In this document: positions 577-24,277 of the stretch, one piece after another
How positions within the stretch are numbered: position 1 is the first letter of the stretch
How the letters are laid out: each line of letters starts with the position of its first letter
Assembly (NCBI RefSeq): GCF_008831285.2
Contig: NC_045140.1
Coordinates: forward strand, 24,136,131-24,200,130
From: Nymphaea colorata
Lineage: Eukaryota; Streptophyta; Magnoliopsida; Nymphaeales; Nymphaeaceae
Reading direction: 5' to 3'
Length of the DNA stretch: 64,000 nt
The notes under the pieces: generated by a model
Told to the model about the DNA's origin: nothing
Database searches by the model: none
Seen by the model: the letters and a program-made list of their open reading frames with translations, nothing else
Program-made: the position numbers and the translations under genes

Positions 577-3500
577 TCATCCGTAGCCAAGGAGGCTCTT
601 TTTGGACTTGCCCTGTCGTAGACTCAAGAAGAACTCGGTGAATATCTGCTCATAGTCGGGCATCTTGCCAAATCCTGAAAAGAACTAACAAAGTGGATAA
701 GGATCCAGAAATTATTTTTCCATCTGCTCTCTTCCCACTCCATTCCCTCAATGAATGTTGACAAATCATTTACCCCAAATGAAGAAATGAAATCAGAATA
801 GACCACTGATCACAAAACTACAAGCCAAAAGGAAAACAGTCAGCAATCCAGGGTGAAATACTAAATGGAGTTTATTTTAACCATAACACAGAAAAATTAA
901 AAAATAAGCCAGTGCGTGATAAAGAGTCTCACCAATTTAAATACCTCCGATTTCTTTCCTAATGCTACTACCCATATCTTCCGTTCCTCACTCCCCACTC
1001 TACTTCATAAGATCTTCCCCACTCCTAACAGAAAAAGCAAAATCAAAACAATCGGGGTTTCTAACCACCAATTCAATGCTTACATCACTATACTCCCAAA
1101 ATACAGGAAATTGGTCCTCAAATTGGCAAATAATCTAACAAGAGCTGGACAAACATGGAACCATCACAGGGGCCGATGGCCAAAACCGTCATAGGATACA
1201 GTTGATTCGCTGCTTGAAATAACACACACACACACACACATACACACACAAAACTTGAAACACTTCTTTGCTTTCCACATAAAAGCAAACAGTTGAATCG
1301 TTGTAAGACGCTATCCGGTTGATACTTTACAAGCCCATTTTCGGATATGATTTCCTATGGTCAAATAGAACCTCACACACTCTTTTTGCGCTTAAAAATA
1401 AGGAACAATTTTAAACCATCTTTATAACGTCTTCAATTTGGAAACAATAAATTTATAATTTGAAAATATGTACATAATACAACTCAAAAGGACAAAAAAA
1501 ATTAGTTTTTAACATCATTTCATAAGAACAAAAAGTGCACAAACTAAAAATTGCACCAACATGCATGTCAAGTAAGTTGCTCAGTCAAAGTACCATGCTG
1601 TAAATATATAAGATTTCCTACACCAAACTATTCTTTGTTGCCCGAACATGGTAACAATCTCAAAAACTAATGACTCTGCAACTTGATTGGGATATGGGAT
1701 GACAATTAAAAGATTAATTATCTTGTAACTCATTCCTTTAATAAAGGGAATGGGTGGAAAAGAACCATCATTATATACTCATTATTCATGTAAATCTGAG
1801 GTTTTCATGTCAAAATAAACTTTGAGGCATACCGGGGAAGTAGTTAATATCAATAACATAGAAGCTGTTTCTGGAACCATGCTCTCGGATTATGTCAATA
1901 TTGAATAGCTGAAGGCCCTGTAAAAAGGAAGGTAAGCTATGCATTCCAGTAAAATAACTGTTTACAGTAATGACACTACATGAAATACTTACCAACCGTA
2001 GACGGAGTTCTTGTGCAAGCTTTTCAAGCAGTGGCAATGGAGGAAACTCTACAATGAAAAGAAGATAGTTAAACAAAGACATGAAATCTGCATTTTTTTT
2101 CTGAAGAAGATCCACCCTAAAAGTTTAAAGAGCTCCAGGGATGGAAATTCATTTCTTTCAAGAACAGGTACAATAAGGTCTAACCAGCAACATAAGGATC
2201 TAAATCAGCATCATGAGCAGAAGCAGCTGCACAAGAGACCCTTGGAAACTGGATAACTCCAACATTATGTAATCGCTCAGACTTCTTGACGTCTGGTAAG
2301 GAAAATCGCCTCACAACTTTAATGGTTTCTCCAATAATGAAGACTTTAAAAAGTACACCACCTTCAATCACATCCAATGAAAGATCATGCGTCATCTTCA
2401 TGGTCAGTGTCAAACGTCACTATGTGATTCATGAGAATAAGATGCTGAACATAGTCTCACCATGGTTCACAAACTCCTGCAAAACCAAAGGCGGTTGAAG
2501 CTTTGACAGCGAAAACTGGTCATAAGCAAGAGACAGTTCATGGGATCTGGCAGTTCCATCCACAAGTAATGGCTTTGCAACTGAAACAATAATATCAAAC
2601 GGTTAAAATTCCTACCAAAGGATATCTCAAAAGGCATCAAAATGTCAAAACAGATGGAAAATTCTTTCATGAAATAAACGGCTCAACAGGCTCTAATCCA
2701 TGTGCCAGAGTGGCATTCATCAGCAGAACTGTGTTGCCAGCTATTTAGCACAGGTACATCAAAATATCCATCACACAAAAATTGGTTGTAAAATAACCAA
2801 TTATAACAATATTTGCAGCCGCACAGAAGTATTATCGTCCTAATATTCATGCTTGTGCAAAATATATAACCAGCTTCAAGCCACCAAATCATAACAATTT
2901 TATGGATATGTGGACAACCAAGTCACCAACTCAGGATGGTAAAAGAAAGGTGCTCTTAGGACTGGACCCACAGAAAACCAGAAGTTACAGTTTGGGAGAA
3001 GAAGATACTGCAACTGTGCACCCACAGTTGTGGAGGAATAGAAACCTCAGGCATTGAAGAGTGGGGATCCAATCACCTAGAAACATTCACAATTCCAGAA
3101 AATTTTTGTTTTGACTATTTCCAGAGAGAACAATTCAGCCACAGGTGGCATAAAAAAATATGGAAAAATTACAAGAATAAACCAGCAAACTAACCAAGAG
3201 GGAGCTTCAACCCAGCTCTATTTACTGCATCAGGAATGGAATTCGGATCTCCCTCTACAACTAGTTGCTTAGGAACACCAATCTTACCTGCCATATACAA
3301 ACAAAGCCGGCATTTGTGAAACAGACTTTAGATTAATATATTGTTTAGGACAGTCTCAGGTACACAACTTTCTGCCATTTGACAACATAATCACAACAAG
3401 CTTCAATTCTTTACAACAAAAACTTAACAAAAAGGATGAACTTCCTAAAATCATATCATATTCTTCGTACACAGAAAAGTACCACTTGAACTACATAAAT

Positions 3501-6500
3501 TCAAATCAGCAACGTCCTTAAGCATTGATTGGCGGTTGTGCAACTGCTTAATGGCATCAGGCGGATCAAGGACAGTGACCTCTGGGTGCTTCAGCTGGTA
3601 TTCCTGCAAGAAGGTCAAAGTAATTTCAGCTTTACCAGTTTGTACTTACTAACTAACAGTCATAAGTAGAACAAGAACAATAACATTAAGGTTCAAGGTC
3701 GTCAAAAAAACCACCAAAAGAACAGACAATTGATGCTGGTAAGAATAACATGCATGATGCATTCAGATCTCAATATGCACTGGTTAACAACCAAACATCA
3801 ATAGCTACCATCCATAAGTCACAAAATCATATTTCATAGGATATGCTCACACCCACAAGTCAGAGAATCATATCAGAGAACTGTTAAGTTGTTGAAGTTG
3901 TGAGATTTAGCTACAAAGTGAGTTGGTGTTAGGTGGCCAACCCTGAAAAAGCCTAGACAGGGATTAACCCGTCCTATTTGACATAATATATGGGGAAAAA
4001 TAGATGAAAGGAAGAAAAAAAAAGGGAAGTATGGGTTTTGAAATTCCTCCACCTGAAGCAATACACTAAAAGAAGAACAAACAAAAGCAATTAGATCTTC
4101 AGTGTTAAAAATGAAAAAAATACATTTCTTGTTTGAGGTGACAAGGAACGTCAGCCTACACATTCAGGCCGTTGCCCAATGCCTGGACTGGCCAGCCAGG
4201 CACCTCAGCGCACCTGGACAAACTTTTGATATATAGTTTGTCTCATCAAACAGTGGGGCATAAAAGGACATGTAATGATATCTTATAGCACCATAAGAAT
4301 GAGACCTGAACAAGCTCCCCTATTACAAGCATTTGATAGGAGTTGCCGCCAGTGCTGTCTGTAACATAATACAAGCACTCGATGACATCTACAGCTAGTG
4401 CTGTAACATGTCCTATTATATGATAAGTCATGTTCGGCAACTACCGCATAAATCATGATAGACCCATGAATCTAATTTGAAGGGTGTACCATAGGTAGTT
4501 GTGTTGTACAATATGGCTCATGTCATGTAATACAAACCTGGGGAACAGGGGGTTTTGAACAAAAGGACGGGCTCAAAACACATAGGATACAAGCAAAAAA
4601 CATAAGAGAACAGAAATTTGTTGAACAAAAATAGAGGAAAATGAAGCAGAATCAATTTAGACCTGACCAAAGCCAGCCCACACTAGAAGCTACATTAGCG
4701 GTAGGGCACAAGCTTAGCCATTAGTCAAGATGCAGCAAAGACCAGACAGCAACCGCTCTGCATATTAATGTAGACTGAGAAAAGAGGAAAAAGAAAAGAT
4801 TTTAGGCCTTTAGCATCAATACATGATTTCACTTGCCCACATTGAATTAGCCCAAGAGCAACATCATGCAAGAAGAAACATACAAGCACAAGTAATAAGC
4901 TGCATAAAGAATGTAATAAGACTTGGGACTTCATAACAACATAGAGACGTCGTACTATAATGTAGGCATTACTAACCTCTAGAACCTGACACCACTCTTT
5001 CCCTGAAATCTGCACAAAATGAAATTAACAAAAAAAAAATCTACTGAGATAGATTGAAATGGGGCAACGAAATTCATCTCCACTAATACAAACGTCGTAA
5101 ATTGGAAAAAATTCTGCATCACATATTAAAAAACAAAAAGGGAAAAGAAAAAAAAAAAACATTTCAAAGGGTCAAAAGGAAAGGTGAGGAAATGTAGAAT
5201 GCACAGACCTTATGCAGGACAATGTCAAATGGGCCTTGGTCCAAAAGAGATCTACTTTGATCGATGGCGACAAACACTATTCCTTTCTTCCTGCACCACT
5301 TAAAGGATATCACGTTTTATAATGACGGTTTCCGATACAAAATGCATACATCACATGGCAACCTTAATCAAACTTCTTAAGCAATCAATGGGATGAAATA
5401 GTCAAAGAATAAAAGCCTCCAACAAAGTCAAAATGTTTAAAAACTGTTTGGCATATGGCTAGCTCTACTCAAATATCACACGGATCACAAAATAGCAATA
5501 GGAAGCCTACAGCAATTACATCCTTGTTAAAGAAGTCAAATAGCATAGCGTATCGTTACTAAATAGACTTCTGCAATACACGATGAACACATGGTCAACA
5601 AGCTGCAGCAATAGAGAGGATTTTAAGTTTTAACAACTGATACTCTACTATGTTAAGTTGTACAGTTGGTATAGTCTGAAGATGAAGAAAGGTGAAGATA
5701 CCTTCTCACAAATTTCAACAATAATACATTTTGCAATCATGAGAACCTCAAAATTCGAACTGAGATGTTAATAGTGTGATATCAATGTATCATTACATCA
5801 ACCGCCTCTATATTGAACCGATAAAACTACCTAACAAGCACCATCTATCCTCCATCTTTTGCATCAGGATTCTGGTTACCCAATTCAAAAGCTATAATAA
5901 CAGGCAACCGGATTCAGTCCACGACCTCCATAATTCTCCCCTCCCTCTCTTTTCTTTCTTATTTTATTATCTTATTTATTTTATCAATACATACAACTCG
6001 TGTACATAAAGGCGATATATGTAAGCTGAGAATTGAATAACGATGAACCATTGAATCATATGTAAACGGGATCATATTATAGCCCCGACCATGCCCACCC
6101 CGGCCCCCCTCCCCAAAAAGAAAAAAAAAAAACATAGGGGCCTTCTTAATGAGAAGTAATAAGTTCCGAGAAAGTGACAAAAAAAAGCCAGCCCATACCA
6201 TGACTCGCTGGATTGTCAATATCCACATCACAAGCCAGCCAAGACCGAACCTACACCATACAAGGCACAGCAGTTATGAAGTTCCAAAAGGTTGTAAGAA
6301 GTTCTGGTTTGAAGTCACGATCAAATCATAATGCAGCAAAAATCTTTCACGGCCCTCGGGAGTATGGAGTACGAACTGTAGATTCATTATTGTCCAGTGG
6401 CGCATAAGACAACCACTTAAAACTAAAGGCAGGGAAAGATAGTTATCCACGACTTTGCAAGATATGTGAGTTGCACGGAAGATATGTGTATTAAAATGGC

Positions 6501-7395
6501 ACGCTATGTTCCACAAAAAATTTTGCAACATCCATGTGCAAAGACCACAAGAACCTTATCTCTTATTCCAAGTTCAAGAAAAAAGATTCAGAAGAATATT
6601 CCCCCAAGCCTCTCCAACGGCGTCAGAACGACCTATACATGTTGACCAAGATTTGTCCCTCGTCCATCGCATAGGTCACGATGACAGAAAATAAAAAGTA
6701 GAAAAAGAAAATCAGAGACGTAACAGCGAGATCCCAATATATTATTACGGAAAAAATTCTGACCCGTTCATCTCCCTATTTCATAACTCAACGCAAATCT
6801 ATGGGCTGTAGTGTCAGTGTCGGCGCCAAGAACCGAACGGCAGCATATTACTGATTAAATCAAAGCTCCCATAGGTTCCTTAATGTCAACTTCCCGGGTT
6901 CTGGTCGAAAATCATTGACCAACGTCCTCTCCCCCCTCCTCCCACGAATATCGTAACGACATCCTGACACCCCAATAACAATAAAGATCAAGAACAATGA
7001 AGCTACATCCGTGCAACGGGATTAAAGAAAACGCCGTAATCCATATCGAACAGGGAGGAAACGAAACAAGAAAGCAAAGGAACAAAAACAAGACAATTCA
7101 GTTCGTAAAGAAACCTGGCTAATCCTTCGAGCGTGGGGCGCAAGAAGCTCTTGATCTTCTTGGACGTGAGCGCGTAGCCGACGACCAGCTTCTGCTGAGG
7201 CGGCAAAGAAGGGACAGAGTTGACGGTCAAGGAGTACAACGCCCCACCGCTGTTCTCCTCCTTCTCCCCCCACTCCGTGTCGTTCCGGCAACCGACCTTG
7301 AGGGAATCGGCGACGTTGTCGATCTTCATGGCGCTCCAATCCCGTCCAACGGAGACCCTCGGGGACACCATCACCGACTCGCCGTTCACCCTCAT
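577..7395 (-). CDS. ITPK: Inositol-tetrakisphosphate 1-kinase, ITPK2/3-like (tandem copy 1)
   Basis: The ten coding exons are 7115-7395, 5209-5290, 4977-5009, 3483-3603, 3195-3287, 2461-2580, 2185-2361, 1993-2048, 1833-1917 and 577-674. All junctions are GT-AG and the frame closes at 381 aa. The family phosphorylates inositol tris/tetrakisphosphates with ATP in the cytosol and nucleus and feeds phytate and inositol pyrophosphate synthesis. Residues 68-76 read QKLVVGYAL, the family's N-terminal motif, followed by the ATP-grasp core. Visible motifs are DGTARSH (211-217), LQEFVNHG (ending at 244), VVRRFSLPD, and the Mg-binding set D329 in FNID and D344/N346 in DINYFPG. The nearest relatives I recall are Arabidopsis ITPK2 and ITPK3 ([12 protein letters not shown]-type segment). 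The first ATG is MRVNGES; a longer frame upstream has no ATG. Exon sizes 2-10 are identical to those of copy 2 downstream. Confidence 0.94.
1223..1250. repeat. (CA)n microsatellite
   Basis: A CA dinucleotide run with one interruption lies in intron 9 of ITPK copy 1. Confidence 0.9.
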
Positions 7396-7650
7396 TCCTT
7401 CCCCGACCCCTCCCGCCAAACCCAGAGAGAACCACCCTCTCTCCGAACCCTAAAGAAACGAGAAGCGGTCCTCCCGCCAAAACGACGATCGCAGAAAACC
7501 CTAACCACTCGCCACATTCGGCAGAGGGTCCTCGGAAGGATCGGCGGACGGGGAGAAGGGAGAGAGTTGAGACTCGAGAGAGGGAAGACAAGGCCGAGGC
7601 AGGGGACGCGTATTTGTAGTAGGAGGAGGGAAGGGAGAGTGGGGGATGAG
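7396..7650 (-). promoter_or_regulatory. ITPK copy 1 leader and proximal promoter
   Basis: This GC-richer stretch directly precedes the ITPK copy 1 start. It contains a telo-box-like AAAACCCTAACC at 7495-7506 (plus-strand reading) and a second AACCCTAAAG at 7446-7455. Telo-boxes are known near plant transcription starts. A weak TATA-like ACAAATAC reads on the minus strand near 7610-7618. The transcription start itself cannot be fixed from sequence. Confidence 0.35.
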
Positions 7651-10600
7651 GGGGGCGGGCCCCACAGCTGCCTCGTCCAGGAAACCGTCGTTTCAGGAAA
7701 ATAACCTGAACAATCTCTCTTGTACTTTTCTTTACGCTCTTTTCGGCCTCGTGACGGGAAAGCGCCAAGTCCATCCAGGTTTGTCCAAAAAGTCTTAACA
7801 TCTATCGGAAAATTACAAGGATTGCCTTTTCGCATGAACCGTAAGAAAAGTGTATCCGGCTCTGCCAGCGGCGCGAATACATCGCCCGCGACCAAGGGTA
7901 AACTAGTCAACTTGAAAAAGGCTTCGTTTCGGTTCCTCGCCTACCGGTTTCCGTGACCTTACTTAATTGGATCCGGATCTAAAATCATGGGAGAAAACTT
8001 AAAATGCAAACGATTATAAAATATAAAATTTTTAAAAAATTAATAGCGAATACCATGTGGCACCGACGGCCCAGACGGAACTAGTTTTAAATCTGAACCC
8101 CAAAGTGGGAGAGCTCATGGTTTGTTATTTTATATATTTAAAAAATAAAAAGTTGCCGCATATTCTTCTCACCCAAGATACGGTGACGCTAGAAATTATA
8201 CGCTTATTGCAGGCATGACTCTTTTACCTTTTTAAATGATGATCAATCTCTTATTATCAATCTTATAGTTAGTATGTGAAAACCTTAAAGAGTGATTTGA
8301 GTTCAATAATATTCTCCACACCTGTCACAATTTTACAATAAGATTGTACTACAACGTAGCATGTGCAACACATTTTAAACTATATATTGAGGCATTTGTG
8401 TTCATATGGAACCTAAGTTGTTAAAGAATTGTTAGTTGCTCCACATATCTTTGAAAGATAAGATTGCTCCCAATAATTTCTTTCTTTATTAACAAAAGAA
8501 TATAAACAGCCAATCAACAAGTCGAATCCAATACCACCAATTAGACGAACGAGAAAAAATATATACAGCACAGAGTTGAGATGCATCAATTTATTATAAA
8601 ACTGGATAAGCATGGACGTTTCATTTTACTTGATGATAAAGTATCCATAACTAGTTTGTGCTGTTTTCTTGGATAAGTAGTACGCCTTTAGAACTAATAG
8701 GGACGTACTAACCGTTTTCCATAATCGCTATCATGTACTAACGCACTTATACTTAAATAACAATGCAATTGGTCACACACGAACAAGTTGATGATCAACA
8801 AAGATATGTTTAAAAACTAATAAAGTCGCATATTCAAACAAAAGCAAGATCAAGACCAAAAAGTTTTTATCTTGTCTAGTTGTTTATTAAGATTGGGTCC
8901 ATAATAACTTAAAACAGGGTACTAACCTTGTAGTTTTATGCTGGCCAGGCGAGCGGAAAAGGCTAAGTTTGATAGCTTTGGATATGAGATTTGAAGCTGA
9001 CTTTAAATTCGTGTTAGGTTAAATCAACAACTTAAGCAAACAATAGATTTCTCAATTGGGGATCTCAAATCTATGTAACCTTATGAAAACCGTGGTAACC
9101 AGGGGCAGGGACGGAGCCAGAAATTTTTTATGAGGGGGCTGAATTAAAGTTTCTAAAACACATTTTTTGTCATCCAAAACAAAAAAACAGGTTTAAAATT
9201 CAAAAACTAGTTTTTTTGTCATGTTATTCAAACGCCAAAACGACTAAAGGAATAGTTTTCACAAAACCAGCTTTTGATGAAAACCATTTTTTCATGGGTT
9301 ACATCCAAACGCTGCCTTAATTTTCTTTCTTTGTTTCTGACTTTTCTGCTTGCTACACGTATTTTATTTTTCTAACATCAGCTTCTGCTTGTATGTCTAA
9401 TACCGGCGGCACGCTGATGTCTTTTTCCAGCATAATTTAGAGGCAGCTTCTTAGTCAATCACCTGATTTGCTTTCATTTGCGACATATTGATTTGAATAT
9501 TTGCTGGCAACGGGACCAATGACCTTTTCTAGTACGTCTAGCTAATATTCAGTTGCAAAATTCAAATTTAATACATGACAAATTACCAATAGAAGATTCA
9601 CATAAAAAATCAAGTAATTAAGCGCTTAGCAGCCATCACCTTGTTGATTGTAAAATATAAACTCAGATCATCAGATTCAAGTGAGTTTTGCGAAATCAAG
9701 CCAAGATTCGCTGATTCAAACTGGGTCAGGCATAGTCATGGCCGAGTTTTAGGCAAAAACTAATCTCCCTGATAAGTTGACCTGGCAGAGTCAACAAGTT
9801 GACTCTCATCAAGTTTTAAAACACTGGACTACGTAGCACTGTGACATTGATGCAATTTCTTAGAAACTGTTCTAAGATGTGGCAGGAGCTTGAACCTTCC
9901 TGGAAGGTTCTTCATTATTAAAAAAGTAGAAAAGTAAAATTGGCGGCTGAAATATGGATAGTGACGGCAATAAAAAAAAAAACTGGAAATTCTTTTGAGT
10001 TGGAAGAATGTAAAGGGAAAATTATGTTTTATTATCACTCGCTAGAGCTTAACTATGCTAAGATTCAAAAGACTAATGTTCTAAATATCTTTAAAGAACA
10101 AAATCAAAGTTTGGCAGTCAGTAATTTCTGAAAATTAAATGAGCCTTCCTGCATGCAAAAAGGGTATACATATTGGATACATCCACCGTTCCAGCTTTGA
10201 CCTAGACCTTATAACCTATCAACTTCACATTTTCAAAGCGGAACACAATCACTACCATCCATGGTTTTATGATTGTCACCGTCATGAACAGTAGTTATAT
10301 ACTTTTCGGCAAGTCTATTTCATGGAAAATGGTTGAGTGAGACTGAGGAAGAGGATCTAAGTGCCCTTTGCAAATGGATTTTAGCAGATGATCGTATCTG
10401 CTGTTGATATCACCGTCTATCAAATACTTGCAATTTGTTTTAAATATCAAGATGTTACTAAAATCAGTGATCTCTATTCCCAAGTGTTACTAAAATCGGT
10501 CAGTCTGAATAACTGTGAAAAGCTGATTATAAATATCTTGAATTACTCTCAATTTTTTTTTTCATTTTTATAAGAAGAAAATCATAATTCATTGGTGACC

Positions 10601-11260
10601 TATTCGACCAAGTCAATGAATCGGCTGACTGAATCGATCACGTCGCTCATCAATAGCGGAGCTACTTGTTGGCTGGAGTAAGCCACAGCCCACGCCCGCC
10701 CCATCAAAAATCTCATTCTAATGTATTAACATCACATTGCTATGACTCCCAACACATTTGTGTGATGAAAAATACTGGCTCCGCCACTGATTTTGCTATT
10801 TCGCTGGCAGTTTAACTTTCCAATGTATGTATAATTAAATAGGAAACAAACTTTTTATCCACTTTGACTACTTACAAAGATGTTTCCGGCAATTTTCGTT
10901 CTTTCACCGAGTTTCTTCCCGTGTTATTTTTATAACATCCAGCTGTTTTGCATGTGCTCCCGTCCACGTTCACAAAAATTACATTTTGGTTTGCCCATTT
11001 TGACCCGTAACAAGAAATTCGAGTGCACTTTGCGACAATCAGGAGCAAAACTTGACCCCTCATATGGAGCTTTCGCCCGAAATTATACGGAAACACATTG
11101 AAATCTACAAGATTGCTCATATGTCTAACTACTTTTGCAAGCAAAGCATTGGATTAAAGCACCAGCGCTGAAAATTCCGGGACTTCAATTTCAAGGATGT
11201 CGGCTGCTGCCAAATCTCCGGTCTAAAGTCTGCGAGTAGGATACCCACATTAACCCACCA
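7651..11260. other. Spacer between the two ITPK genes
   Basis: This is AT-rich DNA without a supportable gene. The 11.0-11.26 kb part should include the 3' flank of ITPK copy 2. It holds the MITE-like repeat at 9150-9316 and two hAT-type end motifs (GGACGGAGCCAG at 9109-9120, inverted GGCTCCGCC at 10778-10786). These two have no matching target-site duplication. Confidence 0.6.
9150..9316. repeat. MITE-like repeat, CATCCAAACGC family
   Basis: The stretch has phrases such as GTCATCCAAAAC, a lone ACTAGTTTTTTTG and ACATCCAAACGC. Similar phrases recur at 33395-33535 and 62990-63140. The shared edges and low-complexity interior suggest a short non-autonomous DNA transposon family, but I could not define a target-site duplication. 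Confidence 0.4.
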
Positions 11261-14200
11261 TCAGTTCTTGCCAACATGGTGCTCCTTGGATTTGCCTTCC
11301 ACTAGGCTCAGGAGAAAGTCGGTGAATATGTGCTCATAATCAGGTATCTTTTCATATCCTGTAGAAAGAGTTCAAAGGGAGATAATGAGGATGCAGCCAC
11401 TATAGGAGAGGTGAAAACAGAACACTGATTATTGGGATGTGCCACGATGAGAATGGTTAAGGAAGCAGGTGACAGTTGAGAGACAATTGCGCATGTTTCA
11501 ACTTTTTTCCTAAACGATCGGAAGCTTATATGGCAGTCGTGAATAAAATCCTTCTGAACTCCTGTGATGACCTTTTCCAGCCCGTGCTATTTGTAGAAAA
11601 ACAGGTCAAGCAGTTGGTTGGGCGTCTGACTAAAGTTATCTAGAAATCTCACAGTGCAAGCAGTTGGTTGGGACTAAAGTTATCAAGAAATCTCAAAGTG
11701 CACAAAGACGTAAAAAAATTTCTCCAAGCTCAGAAAGGTGGCATGGCTTCATCAGGTTTTGGACACTTAAAGCGAAACAAAATCTACTATAAAGTATCAA
11801 AATTGGAAAACAAAACTCAAGGTAGTTAGAGAAGTCATAGTTTACTCATATTTCATAGATATGGCTGGCATCATCCAATGAAAACAAATGGGATCAGTCT
11901 CTGCAATGTCAAATCCAGCCATGGACTGTAAGGCCCTATAATTTCAAGCAAGTGCAATTAGAGACATGCATTCAAACACATATAATATATATGGTTTAAG
12001 AGATACTTATTTGTGTATCTACTTGCTTATAACCTTAGAACCAATCAAAACTGGTTATTATGTCTTAATGGGGCAGCGTAGGAATAAATGAAGGCATTAA
12101 ATTAAAATGAAGTAGTTATAAAAATAAATAAGGTGGTTGGAGAAAAAGAACATAGTTAAGAGACATAGGAAAGACAAATGCCTCATTAAAGAGAATGGAG
12201 GAAACCAAAGAGTCACCTCCTCTAATAGAGAAAGGGGAGAATCAAATTCGGATAGAAATTTTAATGTCCTTGTGGAGGGCTTATTTGACTTGCTTTGGCA
12301 GCCTTTCAATCACCCAGTTGCTGCAGTAGTGGTGATGAAAGTTCCTGCATCAAAATTTTGGAAAGAAGAGAGAGAGAGAGATATCCCATTTTCTGCAACA
12401 TTCTTGGTGGAGAGCAAGGTTGGCAGCCACTGGGTTGCTCCTCTGTTATCTCAGTCAGAAAACAAGGAGTTGGAGGAGTTGCTGGTTGAGGCCTGGTGCA
12501 CATGCACATATATATATATATATATAGGTACATATATTCTGCCATGATAGTAAGGTTGTAACATGAATGACATTTGTAGGCTGCTGAAGTAAAAGATAGT
12601 GCTGATAGAGCAGGGACTGCCTATTCAGAACCAATTCTAGTAAGTAGTTTTACCTAGTTGAATGGATACAACTATAAAGTATTAGAGCACTTTTGAGAAG
12701 GACCTGTCATATTTGTCTTGCAAGGATAGGAAGCAGTTTGATTGATCTTGGAAGACTAAATTGGAGTCAGCAGATCTACAGGCAATCAGAAGCATATTCA
12801 TTTCAAGCTTACAGGTATGGGGATATCCAGAAATAAGTGCAGTATGTAGTTTTTGTATATTTTATCCGGTTGCCTAGAAATAAATATATAGGAATGTCTA
12901 AGGTGTAATTACATGTGTTCAGAAATATAAATGCGTATATTTAGGGTAATGCATGAGCTGTTTGTGTTTGTGAGATAACAGATGGAATATGGTATGTTCA
13001 AGATATAGTTATATGAAGCATGTTGTGGCACCCTTGTGTTGACATTGTTCGTGACATACGTTTCAAGTTCCACGAAGGTTTAAGTATGTTACAATTGATG
13101 GTATGTACGCATGACAGCAGTACATGATCATGTAACAGAATTATAGGCTACTGTTTCGTTGATATAATTCTACCTGAATACTTATTTTAGATATAAAGAA
13201 TCTCATGTTGCAGAAAACTGCAACGAAATTTACAGCAACTCATATCTCCTTATGCTCGAACATATACCACTAAGTATTCAAGCATTCAACAATCAACAGT
13301 AACAAGGGATCTATACGAGTAAAACTGTAAAAGCATAACTAAGGTTCAACAAACTGAATCTATGACATTGACATATTAACTTGTATGAAAGTAATGGGTC
13401 TGTGAACTGTTGTTCTAAACATGCTCAGCCACTAGTGAAGCCTAGGGTTCATGTATTTTCAAGGTACAGTATGTAGGTATATATATATATATGCGTATGG
13501 GTGTGCATGTCTATTAATATACATGGATATAAGCATATGTGCATTGCTACTATAAGGATTGATGCTGATAATGAATACAATATGTGGTCATTGAGACATG
13601 ATGCATCAAAATGTTGTTGGAAGGAACCAACTGAGATTACAATGCAACCGAAATGTAAAGTGGGATCAGATTTTATAAAAAGACAAGAACTCTTATATTT
13701 CATGAAGCATATGTTCACGTGTCTTTACGTGAAAAGATTTTGTGATGGTAGGACTGTGCTTGAGGGACCAAATCTATTGAACTAGGAATGCATGTTGTCT
13801 CCTTGTGATTTGTTTTTTTTGAGCACTAAACTCTATGGAAAGCTGTGCATATGAAACAGGATCAGCACCCAACTAAAAGTACTGCTTATTTTATTACATC
13901 TTTGTGTTATGATCATCATGACATTTCAGAAACCTATATCAGATCAAGACAAATCAATTCTAGGATTCATTTATGCTAGAGCTTGCATAATCCATAACCT
14001 TACTCAACAAAGCCATCTTATTGATACAAAACATGGCATGTAGAGACCATGGGTATGACCTGGGGGATTATAGGTATATTTTATAGTTGTCTGTGAAATT
14101 ACCATGCTGAAAGTAGCCTAGTGCATTAAATCATGAGTTGATAAAGTTAGGCATGGTTGCGGCCTATGTCACCAGAATGCTGGGTGCGGGTGCGGATGCG

Positions 14201-17200
14201 GGTGCCGGTGCGATACATCTAAAAAAATTACGGTGCGGCGGTGCGGCAAAGATATTTATTATTATTAATAATTTATTAATATAATATATTAATAATATCA
14301 AATTTGATAAAAAAAACTAAAAAAAAATGAAATCAATAGGGTGCGGGTTGGGTGCGAATCTGGGTCGCACCCGCACCAGCACCCGCGTCGCGTCGACGCG
14401 GGTGCGTCACCAGGGTTGCCGCACCCTGGTGACAGAGGTTGCGGCTGGACTAAAATTCTGGTACAGATGAAATTATAAAGTTTCTTAGTTTTATTGCATG
14501 AGCATGGTGATGCGATTGGAGAGCACGTGTGAAGTATGAGTGGCTTAACAACATTATGAGAGATGAATTAGAAGGCTGCATGTTGTGTGACATGAGGATT
14601 GCTTACACTGAGTGTGTAAATAATTTTTCATGATCAACAGTAAACTCTGATGGAAGGTGATCATGAGACAGACTAAACGAGTTTAGAAAGAAAAGGATAA
14701 TACTTGCTCATGTCAATCCTACCCTTAGTTTTGTTACAAGTAAGAGTATCACTAAAGTGCAATAAATCTGTATTAATACCTCTACCATATTGTACTTTAT
14801 GATGACAAAACTTACATGATTAAGAGAAATATGTGTATATAGTCTAGAACTATAAATGTGATAAAGAAAGTGTAATATTGGACAACTTAGCCATCTTCTA
14901 AGTAAAGTGAGGAAGCATGTAGATTTCTTCCCCCACAACATAACTACATCCCTATTGGTATATTTATGTATATTTTGATGCAAGCGCTTATACAACAAGT
15001 GCAGAAATAAGATCTGGTCATCCAGGTGAGCTTCATGACCAGCATGGTACCATGTCATGGTATGTAGCTGTTATACATTCATTATATAAGTCTAAGCTTA
15101 TATTGAAAATTTGAAAGTAGAAAAATGATAAATACATTACATTATGATTGAAGGAAATATGTACATATATTTGCCTACACCCTTATGGGTTGAGTGTGCA
15201 CATGGTATGTATAAAGGTTTGCACATTGAAAGGTTGACAGGAATTGTGCACGAGTGACTTCTTATGTGTGTTTTATGTTGGTGCATCCTAGTCCTACTCG
15301 GGATTGTTGGCATGGCAATTGTTTTAGCCTTTGGAAATCGTACACAAGGTTGGACTCCATGAGATTACCAGAATAAGCTCAGTGGTGTAAACCTTATATG
15401 CATAAAGGAACACCGATTATGACAATTATACATGGGAGTATGAGCTAGGGTCCAGTGGATGGTTTTGTCCCAGGAGGTGTTGGTGTGGCTTGAGCTGACT
15501 GTGGCTGGCCACTCCTCTGTCTACAGTGGACTACCCACAGGGTATTGGGCAGCACGAGGACCTGAACTTCTGTATATGTTACTTTTGGAGAGGAAGGCAT
15601 CTCCTGGTCCTTCAACCTGGGTGCCTAGAGGGGCTGGTTTACCACTTGGGTTAAGGCTGAGTGGTTAGGCCCTACTGCTACAACGGCAATCTAGGATATC
15701 TCAAGAGGCTTCACTGCATGTTACCATCAGTCTGTGTGAATCGCTTGGTTTGGTTCTGTTTTGCCCGTGATTGTGCCCACAGGGATTTTCTGCTGATGCT
15801 TGTTGGATTGTCGGCTATGTCACCTGGGTGCGTTTCCTTTGAGCTCGCACCCGCACCCGACGCGTTGCGGGTGCGGGTGCGCTCCAGGTGCGCACCCAAT
15901 CAACACCCGATGATGAGCTCGCACCCAAACCGCACCCGGGGGTTGGATCTAGTTCCGAGTCGAAACCAAATCCAAACCAAGTTCATCTGCGTGTATGGTT
16001 TGGATCTGGATCTGATTTCAAAATGAAACCAAATCCAAAATCCACAAAATCAAATCCACCATTCTCACCCGTCGTCGTTAAATCTAATTTAAGACATCTA
16101 TAGATATATTATATGTTCTCTTTTCTCTTTCAAAAAAAACGATACAGGACTAAAGAATGGTGGCTTTCATAAAACGATCTGTTTACCTTTTTTTTCAAAC
16201 ATTTCTTTTTTGATTTTTTCCCACTATCATAAAATGTATAATTTTAATTGTGTTATTCAATTTCTACGAAAAATTAATAATAATAATAATATTAATATTA
16301 ATATTAATAAAATATCTTCACCGCACTGCCGCACCTAATTTTTTTGAGATGTGCCGCACCGGCACCCGCACCGGCACCGGCACCCGCACCCCGCACTCAG
16401 GTGACATAGATTGTCGGTGTAACTTTGTAACCCATAATGGATGGTGTTACTATGTTTGGCAAGCTATAGCCCATGGTATGGCATGAAACCTACAACTTAT
16501 GGGTAGTAGTCCTGAGCTGTATACTAATTCTGTTTTGATGTAATTATATATCTATTTTGCCGAACTACTCTCCACTTATGATTGGATATTTCCATACCCA
16601 AAGCCTTCTGACCCTTTCCCTTCTACCTCTACAAGTAGCTCTTGATTGACTGATGGCTTTTTGACTCCTTCAGTTTTGCGATGGACGGGCATTAGCGATC
16701 TAAGCATTGAGTCGAGTCTGGCATTTTTGTGGTTATTGTCAATTGAGTTGATGTAGTCTTTTGTTTGGGCTCTACTTGGTTCTTTGGGATGTTGTCCTTC
16801 TTTGTTTTGTGTCTTTTTTGTTTGGTCATTACTCAGGATTTGATTTACTTTTTAAGACTCACTGTTCATCTCTATCATATCTAGGAAAAACAAAAAAAAA
16901 TTGGTGTCAAAACTTGGGTTGTGACATGGACAGCTGTAATGAAAGTTGGCCAAAGCCATCATTATGGCCATCTCTGGAACTAATGACTTCATGTGGCTCA
17001 ATGTACTGTTGAGTAACTAATACTACATAGTACATATTACCTTCAATGTTCAGATGTACTTGCTTATATAAACAGAAAAGGGGATACTTATATAAACAGA
17101 AAAGGGGATACAGGTATAGGAGAAAAAGGCAACTTGGGAATCCCAACACAGGCCTATGGAACATTCAGGTGATGACCTTATGGAAAGGAAAATAAGCATA

Positions 17201-20200
17201 TTGACTAGATTATTGAGTCATGTCAAAGGCAGATTTTGCACATCACATTAACCTTGGTAGTGAGATATACCAGGGAAGTAGTTAATGTCAATGACGTAAA
17301 AGTTGTCTCCAGAACCATGCTCTCGGATTATGTCAATATTGAACAGTAGGAGACCCTGTTTCAAAGGTAAGTTGTCACCATACCAGGAGTAGTTTACTTG
17401 AGTACAGGTTTCAACTAATAACAGCACATATAACACTTACCAACCTCTGGCGGAGTTCTCCTGCAAGTTTCTCAATAAGTGGAAATGGAGGAAGATCTAC
17501 AGTTGAGAAATGGGATCTAAATTATGCACATGTTTCTCAAGAAGGGCAGGACAAAAAGGAAATAATTGATTCTAAGAACAGATGCAATGCTCTAACCTGC
17601 AACGTGTGGATCCAAATCAGCACCAACAGCTGAAGCTGCAGTAAAAGAAACCCTTGGAAGCGGAACAAGTCCAACATTATGTGACTGTTCATAGTTCTCG
17701 ACATCTGGCAAGGAAAAGCGTCTCACAACCTTTAAGGTCTCCCCAACAACGTAGACTTTAAAAAGTACACCACCTTCATCCACATTCAACAGCAAATCCA
17801 AATGTGATTCCAACAGTAAATGTCAACAATAATTGCTACCTTCAGAAAAAGTAAGATGCAAAGTTGGTCTCACCATGGTTCACAAACTCCTGCAGAACCA
17901 ATGGTGGTTCAAGCTTTGACAGTGAAATATGATCATAAGCAAGAAACAGTTCATGGGATTTGGCAGTTCCATCCAAAACTAATGGCTTCACAACTGCAAC
18001 AATTACACAGAACTGTTATAATTCCTCTCCATCAGTGGTCAAGCAACATGATGAAAAGGGATCTAAAATTTCCATCTAATTCACATAATGAATCCCATAG
18101 GCTCTAAACCATGTAGAAGTGAGATTACACCAGCATCAAACTCTCTGGGGAACCATGTATTGTAAGTATCTCAAGATATCCAACACATGTAAAATAGGTA
18201 TATCAAACTTCTTGAAAAAATATAGCATTTGCAGCATAAAAATCATTATGTATTAATCAATTTATCATGCTTGCCTATGTGATCATGGTGCAAACACAAA
18301 CAATTGACCCGTAGCAGCTTTTGTTTCAGAAAGAACCACATCACCAATATTACTACATTATCCCATGCATAAGCACCGAAACCGATTTGACAGTCACCAG
18401 TGCTGACCATGCATCATATAAATAGTTACATCCTCTAATTACAGAAGGTGTTTGAGTTGGAGCCCATGTTCCAGTACTTCACTTTAGAGCTAAGTTCACA
18501 CGTTTGACAAAATCAGGAGCAAACCCAGCTCGACATGACAACAAAAAACTCAAGTTTGTTATCTGATACTTCTGGCCCTTTTGTTTACATCTTCAAGATT
18601 CAAATTTCTCAAAAGAAAAGAAATCAATATATTTGTTATCTAGATTTAGAAAGATTCATATATATGCCAGCAGAAGCAGAAGATAGACTGGGGAATCAGA
18701 GTCTTTAACCAATGGCGTAAAAGGCGATAACACGAGCTGAGGTGTTGAGCCTCCAGTGAGGCGAGGCATTAATTGAAGCGTAAGCTTCATGGACAAATTT
18801 GTGAATTATATAATATTTATAAAAATAATGATAAAATTGAAAAAAATAACTACAATACTAAGCATACCAATAAAGAACAATACAAAACGTGTGCAAACCA
18901 CAACAGTTTGTAAATCCAAACATCTGTCCTAAACACTTAAAAATTAAAATGTTCTAACTTCTAACGATAATAATATCAACCAAGAGAACAAGTATTGGTG
19001 AACAATAATATAAGCATATTGAAACACGCATATGTACAAAAAGCTCAGCGAAGTTGCAAGCAATTGAAGATCTGAACACATTCAGGTATGGGCAGATTCA
19101 CCATTCTGTAGATTTCATACTATGCTGCTCAAAGTGTAGGATAATTGAGACTGAAGGTGCATGTTCTAATTTTCTAAATTTCACCTGTGAGCAAAAGTTT
19201 GTCTTCCTTGAGTTGAATAACAAATTCTTAAAGAAAGCTTGCAGATTCATTTCTCTTGTCCTCACAAAATTTGACATTTTTAATTTTAGAATTCCACCAA
19301 CTTTTTTTTTTTTTTTTTTTTTTACAAAAAGCATGCTCAAGTATTGGTAACATAACAAATGCTTAAGTTTGAATTTCTTTCATTTAACCGCCTATTTCCT
19401 ATGTAATTTAGGCAGTTAAATGAAAGAAAGAAATAAGAACTTGAGCATTTTTTTGTTATTCCATCATAACTTGATTTTATCCAGCATAGTATCATGAAAA
19501 TATGATTGTAATCAGACATCTCATAATTTTATCATGAGTTAAAATAAACGATGATAAAAAACTGAAGTTCAGGAAAGGAGCAGTTTCACTTCTGTTTTGT
19601 TTCATCCTGATAGGAATTACTATTCTCATCTTCTCAAAGGGCAAACTTAACCATATAAAATGCACTCCTTTGGCATTAAATGCTTGTATACATCTAACTC
19701 TCTCTCTCTCTCTCTCTCCACACTATGCAAATAATATTTTGGAAGCTACTACAAATTGTTTTATCTTCATACAAGAGTGAACTATGCAATTCATGTTAGA
19801 TTCTTAGGATATGTTTCCCTAGTTTCATAATTACTGTTCTTCTGTAAATATGGGCTTATTATTATCTTTTTACTTGATGTAGTCATCTGTGTTCCTCTCT
19901 AGTGTGAACACAAGGGTCACAGCCACCCACCCTACAATTTGTATTGCTGACGAAGGGCAGATTAAGGTCATTATTAAAGATTAACCTTATGTTGTTATGC
20001 AGATGCATCCAAGCTTGTCGGTGGCAACATATCTGAAAAACTTACAGCTTAAAGGACAAATTGAAATACTGAGAAGCATGAGGAAAGATAGTTTATGGGT
20101 CAAATTCTTTATGGGCCATGGCCACTGTGAGAGCGAGAGAGGGTTGCCATGGCCAGCACCGGCCATGGCCACACAGAGAGAGGAGGGCGGCTGGGAGGTA

Positions 20201-23200
20201 TGAATCCGGTGGTGGCTCCGCTAGCAGCAGCTTCAGCCTCCACTCCAAATTCGCCGATGAAGGATGCAATGGGGATTAAGGATCAAGAGAAGGGGATTAG
20301 GGATTGATTGAAAAGGATTAGGGTGGCTTTGTGTATTCACTATTCAACATGAATGGTGAATAATGGACACCATCGGGTGGGGCCTTCCCCTGCCTGACCA
20401 GTTTTGCATTTTTTAAAATAAAAAAATTATATCAGTGCTCCGTCCCTGAGGCATGTGCCTCAAGGCTTTTTGAAAAAAATGCCTCTAGTCACAATTTTTT
20501 TGCATGAAGTGTGTGCCTTACAACATTGTCTTTAACTGCAGCATACCCAGCAAAGGAGGTCTTTGAACCAAGTTGTCATCATCTAGTTCAGGACAAGATA
20601 CTGAAAATGCAGCTCCAGTCATACAGTAATAACATGCAGTGAGGAGAGAAAGTCCAAAATATCTAGAAGCAATTACAAGCAAACATGGTACTGCTATTTT
20701 CCTCAACAGGATACCGGATATCCAGAAATTTCATGAAGAAATTAACCATGGAAAAATATGCATCAGCTATTCCCCACATGCAACAACTCATCAACACAGC
20801 TCCCAAACATGCCAACAACATTACAAATCCAAAACAGACAAACAAACTAACCAAGAGGAAGCTTCAACCCAGCTCTCTTTACTGCATCAGGAACCGAATT
20901 GGGATCTCCACGTACAACTAATTGCTTAGGAATAGCAATTTTACCTGCCAGATACCACAAAATTAATATAGCAAAGAAAGAATTTCAGATTCACATTCTG
21001 GGTGGATAGAGCCAGCAACATTCTTTCTCTCAAGTGCCATAAGAGATAGCTGGTACAAGCTTCAAAATTTCTACGACAAAAATTCCAAAGACGAACTATG
21101 CAAATGATACGTAGAAAATATGCAGAAAATTACCATTTGAATAGGATAAATTCAAATCATCAACAACATTAAGCATTGATTGGCGATTGTCCAAGTACTC
21201 AATGGCACCAGGCGGATCAATAACAGTGATCTCAGGATGCTTCTGCACGTATTCCTGCAAGCAGATCAAATAAATTAAGCTTTAAAAACCAAATCACAAG
21301 AAATTTCTTGATGAGTGAAACATAATTTAAGAACATTTTAACTCAAAAAGACTAAATAATTCACATTCACAATTTCTAACTGCAATACTGATCAGGACTG
21401 TTTAATCACAAACTAAATGTTGAAATTGAGATTATTTCTAGTCATATTCAGGGAACAGGAGTTAAACTCCTTCATGTGCAAAGACAGGCAGGTTCTATGA
21501 TATTATTCTTAAATATAGAGGATATTAATCATTTTATTTCACTAGGTGGTCTAACTATACTGAACTTGACGATGCCCTTCATGCGACAAAGAATGGAGAA
21601 GCTTAGTATGGCACCATAAAATATTAGAAAGGTAATATATTGGAAATGCCACCAACAATGTCCTATAGGAACTTGTATAAACTGGTTAGCATCTTTCCTA
21701 TACAAGACATCAGCCATCTAGTCATGATGCAGCAAAGACCAAAAAGCACCTAATCTGCATATTGAGATAAGTGCAATAAGATGGAAAAGAGAAGGGCTGT
21801 AGGTCTTTAGAATTTACCAATATGTCAATATCAGATCAGCTTGAGAGCAACACCATGCATGAGGAATGCATAGAACACATGCAATATGCTACTTGAAGAA
21901 TGTAAACACTTGGGATGTATACAATAACAGACGCCACAACAGCAGTAGGTGTTACTAACCTGAAGAGTCTGAAACCACTCTTTTCCTTTAAACTGCACAA
22001 CATACAAGATTCTTATGAGAGAAGGAATGATACTGATGAAAGGACAGAAAGGTAATCAAAGTACATTCTCTTTGAAAAAAGGGACCAAATGGGAGAAAGC
22101 TAAGACCTCAGAGGGTCTCGAAAGGAAAGATAAAGAACTTGGAACAGTTTACAGCGCAGACCTTATGCAAGACTATGTCAAATGGTCCTTGATCCAAAAG
22201 AGATTTGTTTTGGTCTATGGCAACAAACATTATTCCTTTTTCCCTGCACCAGTTAAAGGATGTGACCTCTCACAGTGATTCTGTAAACAGAAAATTCATG
22301 CCATGATTTACAGCCAAGCAATCTTTTAAACCAATCAATGAGATGATGCAATTAAAAGTAAATATCTGTCTGGCATATATATAACTAGTCCCACTTGATC
22401 TCCTAATCAAATAAAGCAACGAAGGAAAAAAACTCGGTAATTAAAAATTCTACATGATAAGCCAAGTAGCATCAGGCATGGCTAGATTTGCACCACGCAG
22501 CATTTTCTGATGAAGACACGGCCAATAAGTAGCAGAGTCTGGAAGTACAATAGGAAGAGCTTTTAATGGTCGATAGTTTTGCAATCCGGTGAGGCTCTTG
22601 CATGAATTTGGGCATGAAGAAGAAAAGGGATGATACTTTTCCCACAACAATTATACTGCACATGTAAGCAACCCATATAGACCCGGATGCAACATGTGCA
22701 AGTTAAGCATGAAAACATTAAGCATAAATAACAGCTAGTCAAGAAAAATTTTCCCAAACTTTCTTTTTATTAAACAGCATGTCCTAACTGAACTGTAAGT
22801 TTGCAGCATCTACATGGGCAGACCATAAATAAACTTCTGAGTTATGCCAACTACTACAAAATAGATTCAGAATAATGATCCATCAAGCCTTTCTCAACGG
22901 CATTGGAACATGCATCTTGACCAAAGCATTATCCTTCATCATCGCGAGAATCGTGACAAATTAATAGGACATAAACAACCGAATCCATAAATAGAAGGCA
23001 ATACAGAGTCTGGATATATTGTAAGGAAAAGCTCGCAAGGTCTAAGATCTTGACCGTATTTCAACACGATAAGGAAAACAGTGTAACTGTGTAAGTATCA
23101 TTGCACAAACAACAGATAGCGCAGCAGCATGCACACATCAATTGTAGCTCGAATAAGTTCCTAACTGACAATTCTCTCGGATTCGGGGAGAAAACCATTG

Positions 23201-23596
23201 GTCAACACCCCCGCCCCTCTCTCTCTCATTATCACAATAAGGAAAGGTGAAAGATCAATGAAGATACATTCATGCAACAAAAAATATACCCCGTCCCGTC
23301 AAATAAAACGGCATAATTCGGTATCGAACATGAAATAAATGGAGCCATAAGCAAAAAAGTTGGCCAAGTTCGATCATAGAAAACCTCGCTAACGCCTCCA
23401 GTCTTGGTTGCAAGAAGGACTTGATCTTATTTGGTTTGAGCGCGTATCCAACGACTAGCTTCTGCTTAGGAGGCAAAGAAGAACCAGCGCTGCCGCACAA
23501 GAAGCACAAGCCGCCCCCCTTTTCCTCCGTCTCCCTCGACTCTGCATTGTCCCGGCAGGCGACCTTGGGTGACTCGGCGATGCTGTCGTTCTTCAT
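11261..23596 (-). CDS. ITPK: Inositol-tetrakisphosphate 1-kinase, ITPK2/3-like (tandem copy 2)
   Basis: The ten coding exons are 23385-23596, 22162-22243, 21960-21992, 21134-21254, 20852-20944, 17874-17993, 17597-17773, 17441-17496, 17271-17355 and 11261-11358. All splice sites are GT-AG and give 358 aa. Exons 2-10 have exactly the lengths of copy 1, so this is a tandem duplicate. Catalytic positions are kept: DGTAKSH (188-194), [18 protein letters not shown]306 in FNID, D321 and N323 in DINYFPG. The N-terminal extension is shorter than in copy 1; an in-frame TAG lies just upstream of the MKND start. C-terminal residues differ ([12 protein letters not shown] against [13 protein letters not shown]). 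Intron 9 is 5.9 kb against 1.2 kb in copy 1 because of a solo LTR, and intron 5 is 2.9 kb against 0.6 kb. The gene looks functional if the long introns splice. Confidence 0.92.
14164..14437. mobile_element. MITE A, GTGCGG-rich terminal inverted repeats
   Basis: The 274-bp element begins CTATGTCACCAG and ends CTGGTGACAGAG. The ends form a 12-bp inverted repeat with one mismatch. It is flanked by the perfect 8-bp duplication GTTGCGGC (14156-14163, 14438-14445). Subterminal regions are tandem GGTGCGG copies. The centre is AT-rich (TTATTAATAAT-like). A GC hairpin (GCACCCGCGTCG against CGACGCGGGTGC) sits near the right end. The 8-bp duplication fits hAT, or a Mutator-like element at the low end of its range. 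No coding capacity. Confidence 0.85.
15815..16409. mobile_element. MITE B, same family as MITE A
   Basis: The 595-bp element starts CTATGTCACCTGGGTGCG and ends CGCACTCAGGTGACATAG. It is flanked by the perfect 8-bp duplication ATTGTCGG (15807-15814, 16410-16417). Its right arm, reverse-complemented, matches the left arm of MITE A for about 120 bp, including the GTGCGG tract and the AT-rich stretch. A perfect 14-bp-arm hairpin lies at 15846-15881. It has no transposase. Confidence 0.88.
18700..20520. other. Insertion-like stretch in ITPK copy 2 intron 5
   Basis: Intron 5 here is 2858 bp; the same intron in copy 1 is 614 bp, so roughly 2.2 kb has been gained. GAGGC-rich phrases around 18713-18790 (AGGCG, GCCTC, GAGGCGAGGC) and 20445-20495 (GAGGC, GCCTC in inverted arrangement) are candidate ends. 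It also contains a T22 tract at 19302-19323, a CT tract at 19701-19720, a foldback at 19352-19459 and a CCATGGCC-rich palindromic patch at 20114-20170. No target-site duplication or coding domain could be assigned. Confidence 0.4.
19352..19459. repeat. 108-bp near-perfect foldback
   Basis: The arms read ATAACAAATGCTTAAG...TTTCTTTCATTTAACCGCC and its near reverse complement. The inner 21 bp pair with one mismatch around a 14-base loop. The outer arm has a few mismatches and a short length difference. It may be a small foldback MITE or a transcribed hairpin within the ITPK intron. Confidence 0.7.
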
Positions 23597-24277
23597 GGCG
23601 CTGCACTAAGGCGCAACGGCGATCCTCGGGGGACACCACTGGCGGCTCCGTTCAGCCTTATTTCTCTTCCCCTCTCCCCTCCAATTGCAGAGACAAGAAC
23701 CACCACCTCCCAAATCCTAGAAGGAAGAAGCTGTTCCGTGTGAAAAACAACGATCACTGGAATCTCAGCCACCACGTCCAACAGATGAGCGTTGGAATGA
23801 TCGTGACGAGAGTCCCAAATTTAAAGAGAGAGAGAGAGTGCTAGGCGGATGGCGCGCATTTCTAACAGAGGGAGAGGAGATACAGCGCGGGTCCATGCAC
23901 CAATCTCACTAGCGTCGTAGCGTATCGTTGATAACCGATACGTATCTTCATGCCAGTATGTATCGGCCAATGCGATTAAACGATGTCATTAAATACAGCA
24001 GGCCCTGCCTTTACAGATATTCCAAATTCATACTTTTTATTTTTATCAAAACGAAGTTTAAATTATTTGTAGACAATTTGACGTAAAATGTATAAACAAA
24101 AAAAATTATCTTTTAGACAATTTAAATGAAAATATATAAACAAATGGAATCCGATTCTCATCCAGTGATTCGGCACCATTTTCCGGCCTTTTTCATATTC
24201 CATCTTACCTCATGCCCTATTGTCGACTTTATGTTTGGCTGATGATTTTTTAACAAAAATTATTTCTCACAAATAAC

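What the first reader, a model, noticed from the sequence alone, without database searches (positions are those of the whole stretch)
14156..16417. Two members of one GTGCGG-rich MITE family nested in the same LTR
Both elements share CTATGTCACC termini and about 120 bp of arm sequence, and each has its own perfect 8-bp duplication (GTTGCGGC, ATTGTCGG). Two independent insertions of one family into one LTR suggest recent activity or a preference for such targets. The terminal sequence does not match the hAT or Mutator ends I know.
Basis: seen in the sequence. Interest (0 to 1): 0.7.

Follow-up and report, generated by a model that had tools for sequence, protein, structure and literature searches.

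The report
Two hAT-type MITEs in one LTR
Two short, non-coding jumping-gene remnants sit in one retrotransposon repeat of a plant genome; they belong to a large family of the well-known hAT class, whose longer, enzyme-coding relatives are present in the same genome, so this is a well-resolved but ordinary case.

Summary
Element 1 (14164-14437, 274 bp) and element 2 (15815-16409, 595 bp, opposite orientation) share CTATGTCACC-type ends and arms, and each has a perfect 8-bp duplication. They are the only two such structures found in the window; chance gives 0.15 per 64 kb. Copies of the host repeat elsewhere show both sites empty with one copy of the target. The host is LTR-type repeat of a Ty3/gypsy chromovirus.

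In 72 sampled copies, exact duplications at candidate right ends were 33 of 8 bp, one of 4 bp, none of 5-7 or 9-12, leaning to nTnnnnAn. Two 4.5-4.8 kb elements with the same left end, terminal GGTGCGG arrays and 8-bp duplications encode DUF659 (both) and Dimer_Tnp_hAT (one) transposase parts.

Element 2 is younger than LTR copies about 97% identical to its host. Target preference is not shown: 667 ends predict about 2.7 random pairs within 2.5 kb, though close pairs among the 100 listed places exceed chance. New member of a known kind; low interest.

The parts
14156..14163 (+). left 8-bp target duplication of element 1 (GTTGCGGC)
   Evidence: single copy in four empty paralogous sites (L078-L081; identical in L080)
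14164..14437 (+). element 1: 274-bp hAT MITE, left end CTATGTCACC, right end CTCTGTCACC (read inwards)
14164..14284 (+). left subterminal arm with GGTGCGG sites, 81% identical to positions 1-120 of the 4493-bp element B
14361..14430 (+). right subterminal arm, 79% identical to positions 4416-4486 of element B
14438..14445 (+). right 8-bp target duplication of element 1 (GTTGCGGC)
15807..15814 (+). 8-bp target duplication of element 2 (ATTGTCGG), low-coordinate copy
   Evidence: single copy ATTGTCAG / ATTGTTGC in empty sites L073, L074
15815..16409 (-). element 2: 595-bp hAT MITE, conserved left end at 16409 reading leftwards; member of the largest sampled cluster (22 of 44)
16286..16409 (-). 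left subterminal arm of element 2 with GGTGCGG sites; 84% identical to positions 1-130 of the 4758-bp element A
15822..15899 (-). right subterminal arm of element 2; 77-78% identical to the right ends of elements A and B
16410..16417 (+). 8-bp target duplication of element 2 (ATTGTCGG), high-coordinate copy
13410..16976 (+). host: LTR-type repeat of a Ty3/gypsy chromovirus (minimum extent seen in nine fetched stretches; exact LTR ends not fixed), interrupted by the two MITEs

Best explanation
Both elements are non-autonomous hAT-superfamily MITEs. They keep only the two end regions of a 4.5-4.8 kb hAT transposon: the CTATGTCACC / CAATG-type terminal repeat and the subterminal GGTGCGG arrays. 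The transposase of such full-length relatives is inferred to bind the GGTGCGG arrays through its N-terminal zinc-finger (BED-like) region, cut at the terminal repeats and insert the element into a staggered 8-bp target of the form nTtnnAAn, which repair duplicates. Two copies of different length subfamilies entered the same LTR of a Ty3/gypsy chromovirus independently. Shown: ends, duplications, empty sites, end regions shared with transposase-coding copies, target bias, LTR-type host. Inferred: binding, cutting, trans-mobilisation, origin by internal deletion.
For: 667 genome matches to the 26-base left-end pattern (up to 2 mismatches) against 0 for the reversed control. Duplication length at 247 candidate right ends in 72 loci: 33 exact at 8 bp, 1 at 4 bp (0.96 expected), 0 at 5-7 and 9-12. 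32 distinct duplications: T at position 2 in 18, A at 6 in 22, A at 7 in 22, like nTnnnnAn reported for the hAT element Hermes (PMC10368747, PMC2803484, passages seen). Elements A (C7:11110996-11115753, 4758 bp, TTTAAAAG) and B (C2:26899399-26903891, 4493 bp, CGTGCAGA) carry the same left end with perfect 8-bp duplications. Their frames give DUF659 (E 1e-44 in A, 3e-31 in B) and Dimer_Tnp_hAT (E 3.5e-15 in B); the C-terminal part of B matches the Hermes transposase (E about 8e-9). Window elements align to both ends of A and B. All 11 GGTGCGG sites of A and of B lie within about 100 bp of the left end or 200 bp of the right end. 10 of 72 sampled left ends lead into the same transposase gene, starting 0.53-0.77 kb inside (five of the ten, L026-L030, look like segmental copies of one). 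Empty sites for both insertions.
Against: The window's own duplications fit nTnnnnAn only by half: GTTGCGGC has T2 but G7; CCGACAAT (left-end orientation) has A7 but C2. Only 9 of 32 duplications have both T2 and A7. Right ends vary, and A and B end in CAATGATACC, 7 of 10 like the MITE end. MITE interiors mostly do not align along the transposon, so the exact parent of each subfamily is not shown. 26 of 72 loci gave no right end by the rule used in the 1.5 kb searched; two of these are A and B, and L023 has a 7-of-8 duplication at 1465 bp with the CAATGATACC end. No BED family hit, and the C-terminal fragment of A gave no Pfam hit; the DUF659 fragment gave no PDB hit. Neither A nor B has one unbroken transposase frame, so no working enzyme source was shown.
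Confidence: 0.95

Rival explanations
1. The family is Mutator-like (MULE) MITEs with shortened duplications.
For: Long imperfect arms at both ends can occur in MULEs (recalled).
Against: Duplications are 8 bp in 33 exact cases, with none of 9-12. The transposase parts in the two full-length copies are hAT; no MULE domain was reported for the six fragments scanned.
Confidence: 0.02
2. The two elements are not independent insertions: one arose from the other by local duplication or inversion inside the LTR.
For: Same family, about 1.4 kb apart, opposite orientation. A same-orientation pair at C7:9493429-9494164 does look like a duplicated or composite unit.
Against: Each has its own different 8-bp duplication, each site is empty in other LTR copies, and each is closer to elements elsewhere (86-89% over full length for element 1, 94% over full length for element 2) than to the other (81% over one arm).
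Confidence: 0.01
3. The family prefers this LTR, or LTRs or its own neighbourhood in general, as a target.
For: Two insertions in one LTR copy. Among the 100 listed perfect matches, two pairs lie within 2.5 kb where 0.06-0.08 are expected at random.
Against: About 2.7 pairs within 2.5 kb are expected at random for all 667 ends in 407.8 Mb. The window pair was picked out because it is a pair, and the other pair (C7) lacks separate duplications. None of 72 held loci of the family (L001-L072) matches this LTR outside the MITEs.
Confidence: 0.08

Closest known systems
hAT superfamily transposons (Hermes, Ac and relatives)
   Same: 8-bp duplication with nTnnnnAn bias; short terminal repeats; subterminal repeat arrays; Dimer_Tnp_hAT transposase part matching Hermes in sequence (PMC10368747 passages seen)
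   Different: Own terminal sequence CTATGTCACC and GGTGCGG subterminal unit; transposase of the DUF659 plus dimerisation type. Placement among hAT groups was not tested by a tree.
Plant hAT MITEs such as BniHAT-1 and BniHAT-2 of Brassica nigra (PMC7385995, passages seen)
   Same: A few hundred bp, 8-bp duplications, hundreds of copies (434 intact for BniHAT-1)
   Different: GC-rich GGTGCGG arms at both ends here, and transposase-coding relatives with shared ends found in the same genome. Sequences were not compared with the Brassica families.
Plant MITEs with CTATGTTGCTCGGACTC ends (recalled; a matching 21-nt tobacco small RNA was seen in PMC3237444, passage)
   Same: A subset here ends CTAAGTCACCCGGACTCT (L013, L052; similar in L051), close to that recalled end
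   Different: Relationship rests on recall and a short end match; no plant repeat library could be searched.
P and Mutator elements
   Same: P also makes 8-bp duplications (recalled)
   Different: Transposase parts in the two full-length relatives are hAT, not P or MULE

Membership tests
hAT superfamily | 8-bp target duplication | tested here: met
   33 exact 8-bp duplications in 72 loci; one 4-bp match at chance level; none of 5-7 or 9-12
hAT superfamily | target bias nTnnnnAn | tested here: met
   32 distinct duplications: T2 18, A7 22; both together only 9 of 32
hAT superfamily | short terminal inverted repeats (10-25 bp, PMC3942097 passage) | tested here: met
   10-bp core, about 18 bp with mismatches
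hAT superfamily | autonomous-size copies of 2.5-5 kb with hAT transposase between the same ends | tested here: met
   elements A 4758 bp and B 4493 bp; DUF659 in both, Dimer_Tnp_hAT in B only. Frames are interrupted in both, so structure and not activity is shown
hAT superfamily | BED zinc finger at the N-terminus | tested here: inconclusive
   cysteine-histidine pattern seen by eye in A and B; no Pfam BED hit, weak C2H2 hit below cut-off; no relevant PDB match
hAT superfamily | subterminal repeats near both ends | tested here: met
   all 11 GGTGCGG in each of A and B are near the ends; binding not tested
hAT superfamily | DDE catalytic triad with insertion domain | not tested
   no structure prediction was run
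Ac-type versus Buster-type hAT | target nTnnnnAn (Ac) versus central TA (Buster; recalled) | tested here: inconclusive
   TA at positions 4-5 in 1 of 32, so the target is Ac-like; no tree was built
MITE | short, non-coding, many copies, ends shared with a transposase-coding element | tested here: met
   274 and 595 bp; no Pfam domain in window 8001-17302; 667 left ends, which include transposase-coding copies; ends shared with A and B
LTR of Ty3/gypsy chromovirus (host) | same repeat on both sides of an RT-RNaseH-integrase-chromodomain interior, same orientation | tested here: met
   C2 copies about 8.5 kb apart, L082 between them (chromodomain and SH3 hits below Pfam's cut-offs). TG...CA ends and primer-binding site not verified

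The most novel reading that the evidence does not exclude
The family's GGTGCGG ends let the hAT transposase pair ends of two neighbouring copies and move the DNA between them: on C7 (L061/L062) two MITE copies, 95% identical, flank 149 bp of other DNA and only the outer ends carry an 8-bp duplication (7 of 8 identical). If real, closely spaced MITE pairs like the one in the window could act as composite hAT elements carrying host DNA.
Probability: 0.3. Interest if true: 0.4.

Novelty: new member of a known kind. Interest (0 to 1): 0.22.

Why it matters
It also gives a left-end pattern that finds hundreds of copies. The value is mainly for annotation; the biology is that of known hAT/MITE pairs.

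Tried and rejected
Literature: searches combining the start of the end sequence with MITE / repeat / duplication terms gave 0 papers holding all terms; (at least 4 of 5 terms) gave 128 papers, of which the 20 listed hold no CTATGT. Sequence-only searches gave 221 papers (30 listed), 299 (30 listed) and 8 (all listed); the titles listed are not about transposons, and only one of them (PMC3237444) was opened at the passage. DUF659 + hAT + MITE + plant gave 0 papers. So no named family with CTATGTCACC ends was found in these searches of the open-access library; that is not absence from print.

Bacterial-type promoter and terminator scan and Rfam (0 matches) gave nothing useful.

Chance explanation: rejected and by the reversed-pattern control. 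Mutator, P and local-duplication readings: rejected, see rivals. Target preference: not shown, not excluded.

Not done because the genome search machine did not answer: count of transposase copies and whether any has an unbroken frame; exact ends of the host LTR. Also not done: a test for CTATGTTGCTCGGACTC-type copies in this genome, a structure prediction, a transposase tree.

Sampling: 70 loci were fetched of the other 98 listed places (100 listed, all perfect matches, out of 667 matches; two are the window's own); 28 listed places, 26 of them on C8-C11, were not fetched. Of the 46 loci counted with a partner, 33 have exact 8-bp duplications, 11 match 7 of 8, and two only 6 of 8 (L046, L051; L046 is probably spurious); these two were dropped. 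L062 is the composite pair and stayed in as one element. L048 and L049 share one duplication, hence 32 distinct of 33.
Full report
WHAT IS THERE. Element 1 is 14164-14437 (274 bp) between GTTGCGGC copies at 14156-14163 and 14438-14445. Element 2 is 15815-16409 (595 bp) between ATTGTCGG copies at 15807-15814 and 16410-16417. Element 2 is inverted relative to element 1. Their conserved left arms are 81% identical over 139 columns and their right arms 73% over 102 columns. A scan of the whole window for 8-bp duplications around a 9/10 inverted repeat finds these two and nothing else; 20 Markov sequences average 0.15. Of 16 GGTGCGG heptamers in 64 kb, 14 are in these elements.

EMPTY SITES. A search of the window's own genome (407.8 Mb, 783 contigs) with the 1361 bp between the elements gave 48 matches, a lower bound (40 of 338 candidates were scored). 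Nine short stretches from copies were fetched. For element 1, L080 reads straight through the site with one GTTGCGGC, and L078, L079 and L081 are empty with slightly changed targets. For element 2, L073 (ATTGTCAG) and L074 (ATTGTTGC) are empty; L075-L077 leave no room for the element either, but are too diverged at the site to read the target. Both insertions and both duplications are therefore real.

THE HOST. Two copies of the host repeat lie about 8.5 kb apart in one orientation on C2. A 3.2-kb stretch between them, read with X at stops, carries reverse transcriptase, RNase H and integrase zinc-binding hits, and weaker SH3_Tf2-1 and chromodomain hits below Pfam's cut-offs, on the matching strand only. 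In the window the repeat runs at least from 13410 to 16976. The window shows no second LTR and no Pfam domain in 8001-17302, so this may be a solo LTR or a remnant; I did not fix its ends.

THE FAMILY. The left-end pattern CTATGTCACCNGNNTGCNGGGTGCGG has 667 matches with up to 2 mismatches, against 0 for the reversed control. I read 70 of the other 98 listed places plus the two window copies. Among 247 candidate right ends, exact duplications occur at 8 bp in 33 cases, at 4 bp once (0.96 expected) and at no other length from 5 to 12. By the rule used, 46 of 72 loci have a right end within 1.5 kb (33 exact, 11 with 7 of 8, two with 6 of 8) and 26 do not. The 32 distinct exact duplications give nTtnnAAn: T2 in 18, A6 in 22, A7 in 22; both T2 and A7 in 9, central TA in 1. 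Hermes, a hAT element, is reported to prefer nTnnnnAn (PMC10368747 and PMC2803484, passages seen). Right ends vary: CAATGTCACC 11, CTATGTCACC 9, CTAAGTCACC 5, others fewer, of 46. The CAATG form fits the hAT terminal pattern as I recall it. Element 2 falls in a cluster of 22 and element 1 in a cluster of 6, of 44 MITE-type elements compared.

THE SOURCE. Ten of 72 sampled left ends lead into a transposase gene that begins 0.53-0.77 kb inside; five of the ten (L026-L030) share nearly the same flank and are probably segmental copies. Two were followed to the far end: element A, C7:11110996-11115753, 4758 bp, duplication TTTAAAAG; and element B, C2:26899399-26903891, 4493 bp, duplication CGTGCAGA. 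Pfam finds DUF659 (E 1e-44 in A, 3e-31 in B) and, in B, Dimer_Tnp_hAT (E 3.5e-15); the C-terminal fragment of A gave none. The C-terminal part of B matches the Hermes transposase in the PDB at about 8e-9; the DUF659 fragment of A matches no PDB chain. Both frames are interrupted: B by at least one in-frame stop, A by a stop and frame changes. A and B are 97.3% identical over 3.25 kb. Window element 1 matches B at both ends (81% over 121 bp, 79% over 71 bp) and element 2 matches A at both ends (84% over 131, 77% over 84). All 11 GGTGCGG heptamers of A and of B lie in their end regions, and the first lies at the same offset (19) in A, B and both window elements.

HOW IT MOST LIKELY WORKS. Inference from these parts and from Hermes, where BED domains bind subterminal repeats (PMC10368747, passages seen): the transposase of full-length relatives recognises the GGTGCGG arrays and terminal repeats of the MITEs, excises them and reinserts them with an 8-bp stagger. 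Binding, cutting and mobilisation are not shown here. A BED domain was not detected by Pfam or by PDB sequence search; only a cysteine-histidine pattern is visible.

AGE AND TARGETING. LTR copies lacking element 2 are about 97% identical to the window's LTR over 555 and 569 bp, so element 2 entered after those copies separated. Its nearest sampled relatives are 94-96% identical; those of element 1 that align over its full length are 86-89%, with partial matches up to 92%. This is moderately recent, not fresh. Two insertions in one LTR need no preference: about 2.7 pairs within 2.5 kb are expected at random for 667 ends, and none of the 72 loci L001-L072 matches this LTR outside the MITEs. Against this, the 100 listed perfect matches hold two such pairs where 0.06-0.08 are expected; one is the window pair, which was selected for being a pair, and the other (C7) is a composite or duplicated unit. 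Clustering of the family was not otherwise tested.

VERDICT. A correctly seen, well-bounded pair of hAT MITEs: a new member of a known kind, of low to moderate interest.

Noticed in passing
L061/L062 (G000:C7:9493429-9494189): Two same-orientation MITE copies, 95.4% identical, separated by 149 bp of other DNA; an 8-bp duplication (CCCGTCGC/CCCGTCGT, 7 of 8) is only at the outer ends. Composite transposition or tandem duplication.
   Followed up: partly
L026-L030 (G000:C3:8.69-9.00 Mb): Five transposase-bearing left ends with nearly the same flank, so probably segmental copies of one full-length-type element rather than separate insertions.
   Followed up: partly
window 15803/15804 versus L073 and L074: A 26-bp stretch present in the two LTR copies without element 2 is missing in the window 3-4 bp upstream of element 2's duplication.
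   Followed up: no
window 9100-9140 and 10775-10789: Sequences resembling CAGNGGCGGAGCCAG-type hAT (Tip100-like, recalled) ends; possible remnants of another hAT family.
   Followed up: no
window 1823-7469 and 17261-23734: Paralogous segments in the same order and orientation (71-86% identical pieces) lie on either side of the LTR with the MITEs.
   Followed up: no
L013, L052 (also L051) right ends: A subset of the family ends CTAAGTCACCCGGACTC, close to a recalled widespread plant MITE end; a tobacco small RNA listed as nta-miR390c in PMC3237444 (AGCTATGTTGCTCGGACTCTC) matches that recalled end and may be MITE-derived rather than miR390.
   Followed up: partly
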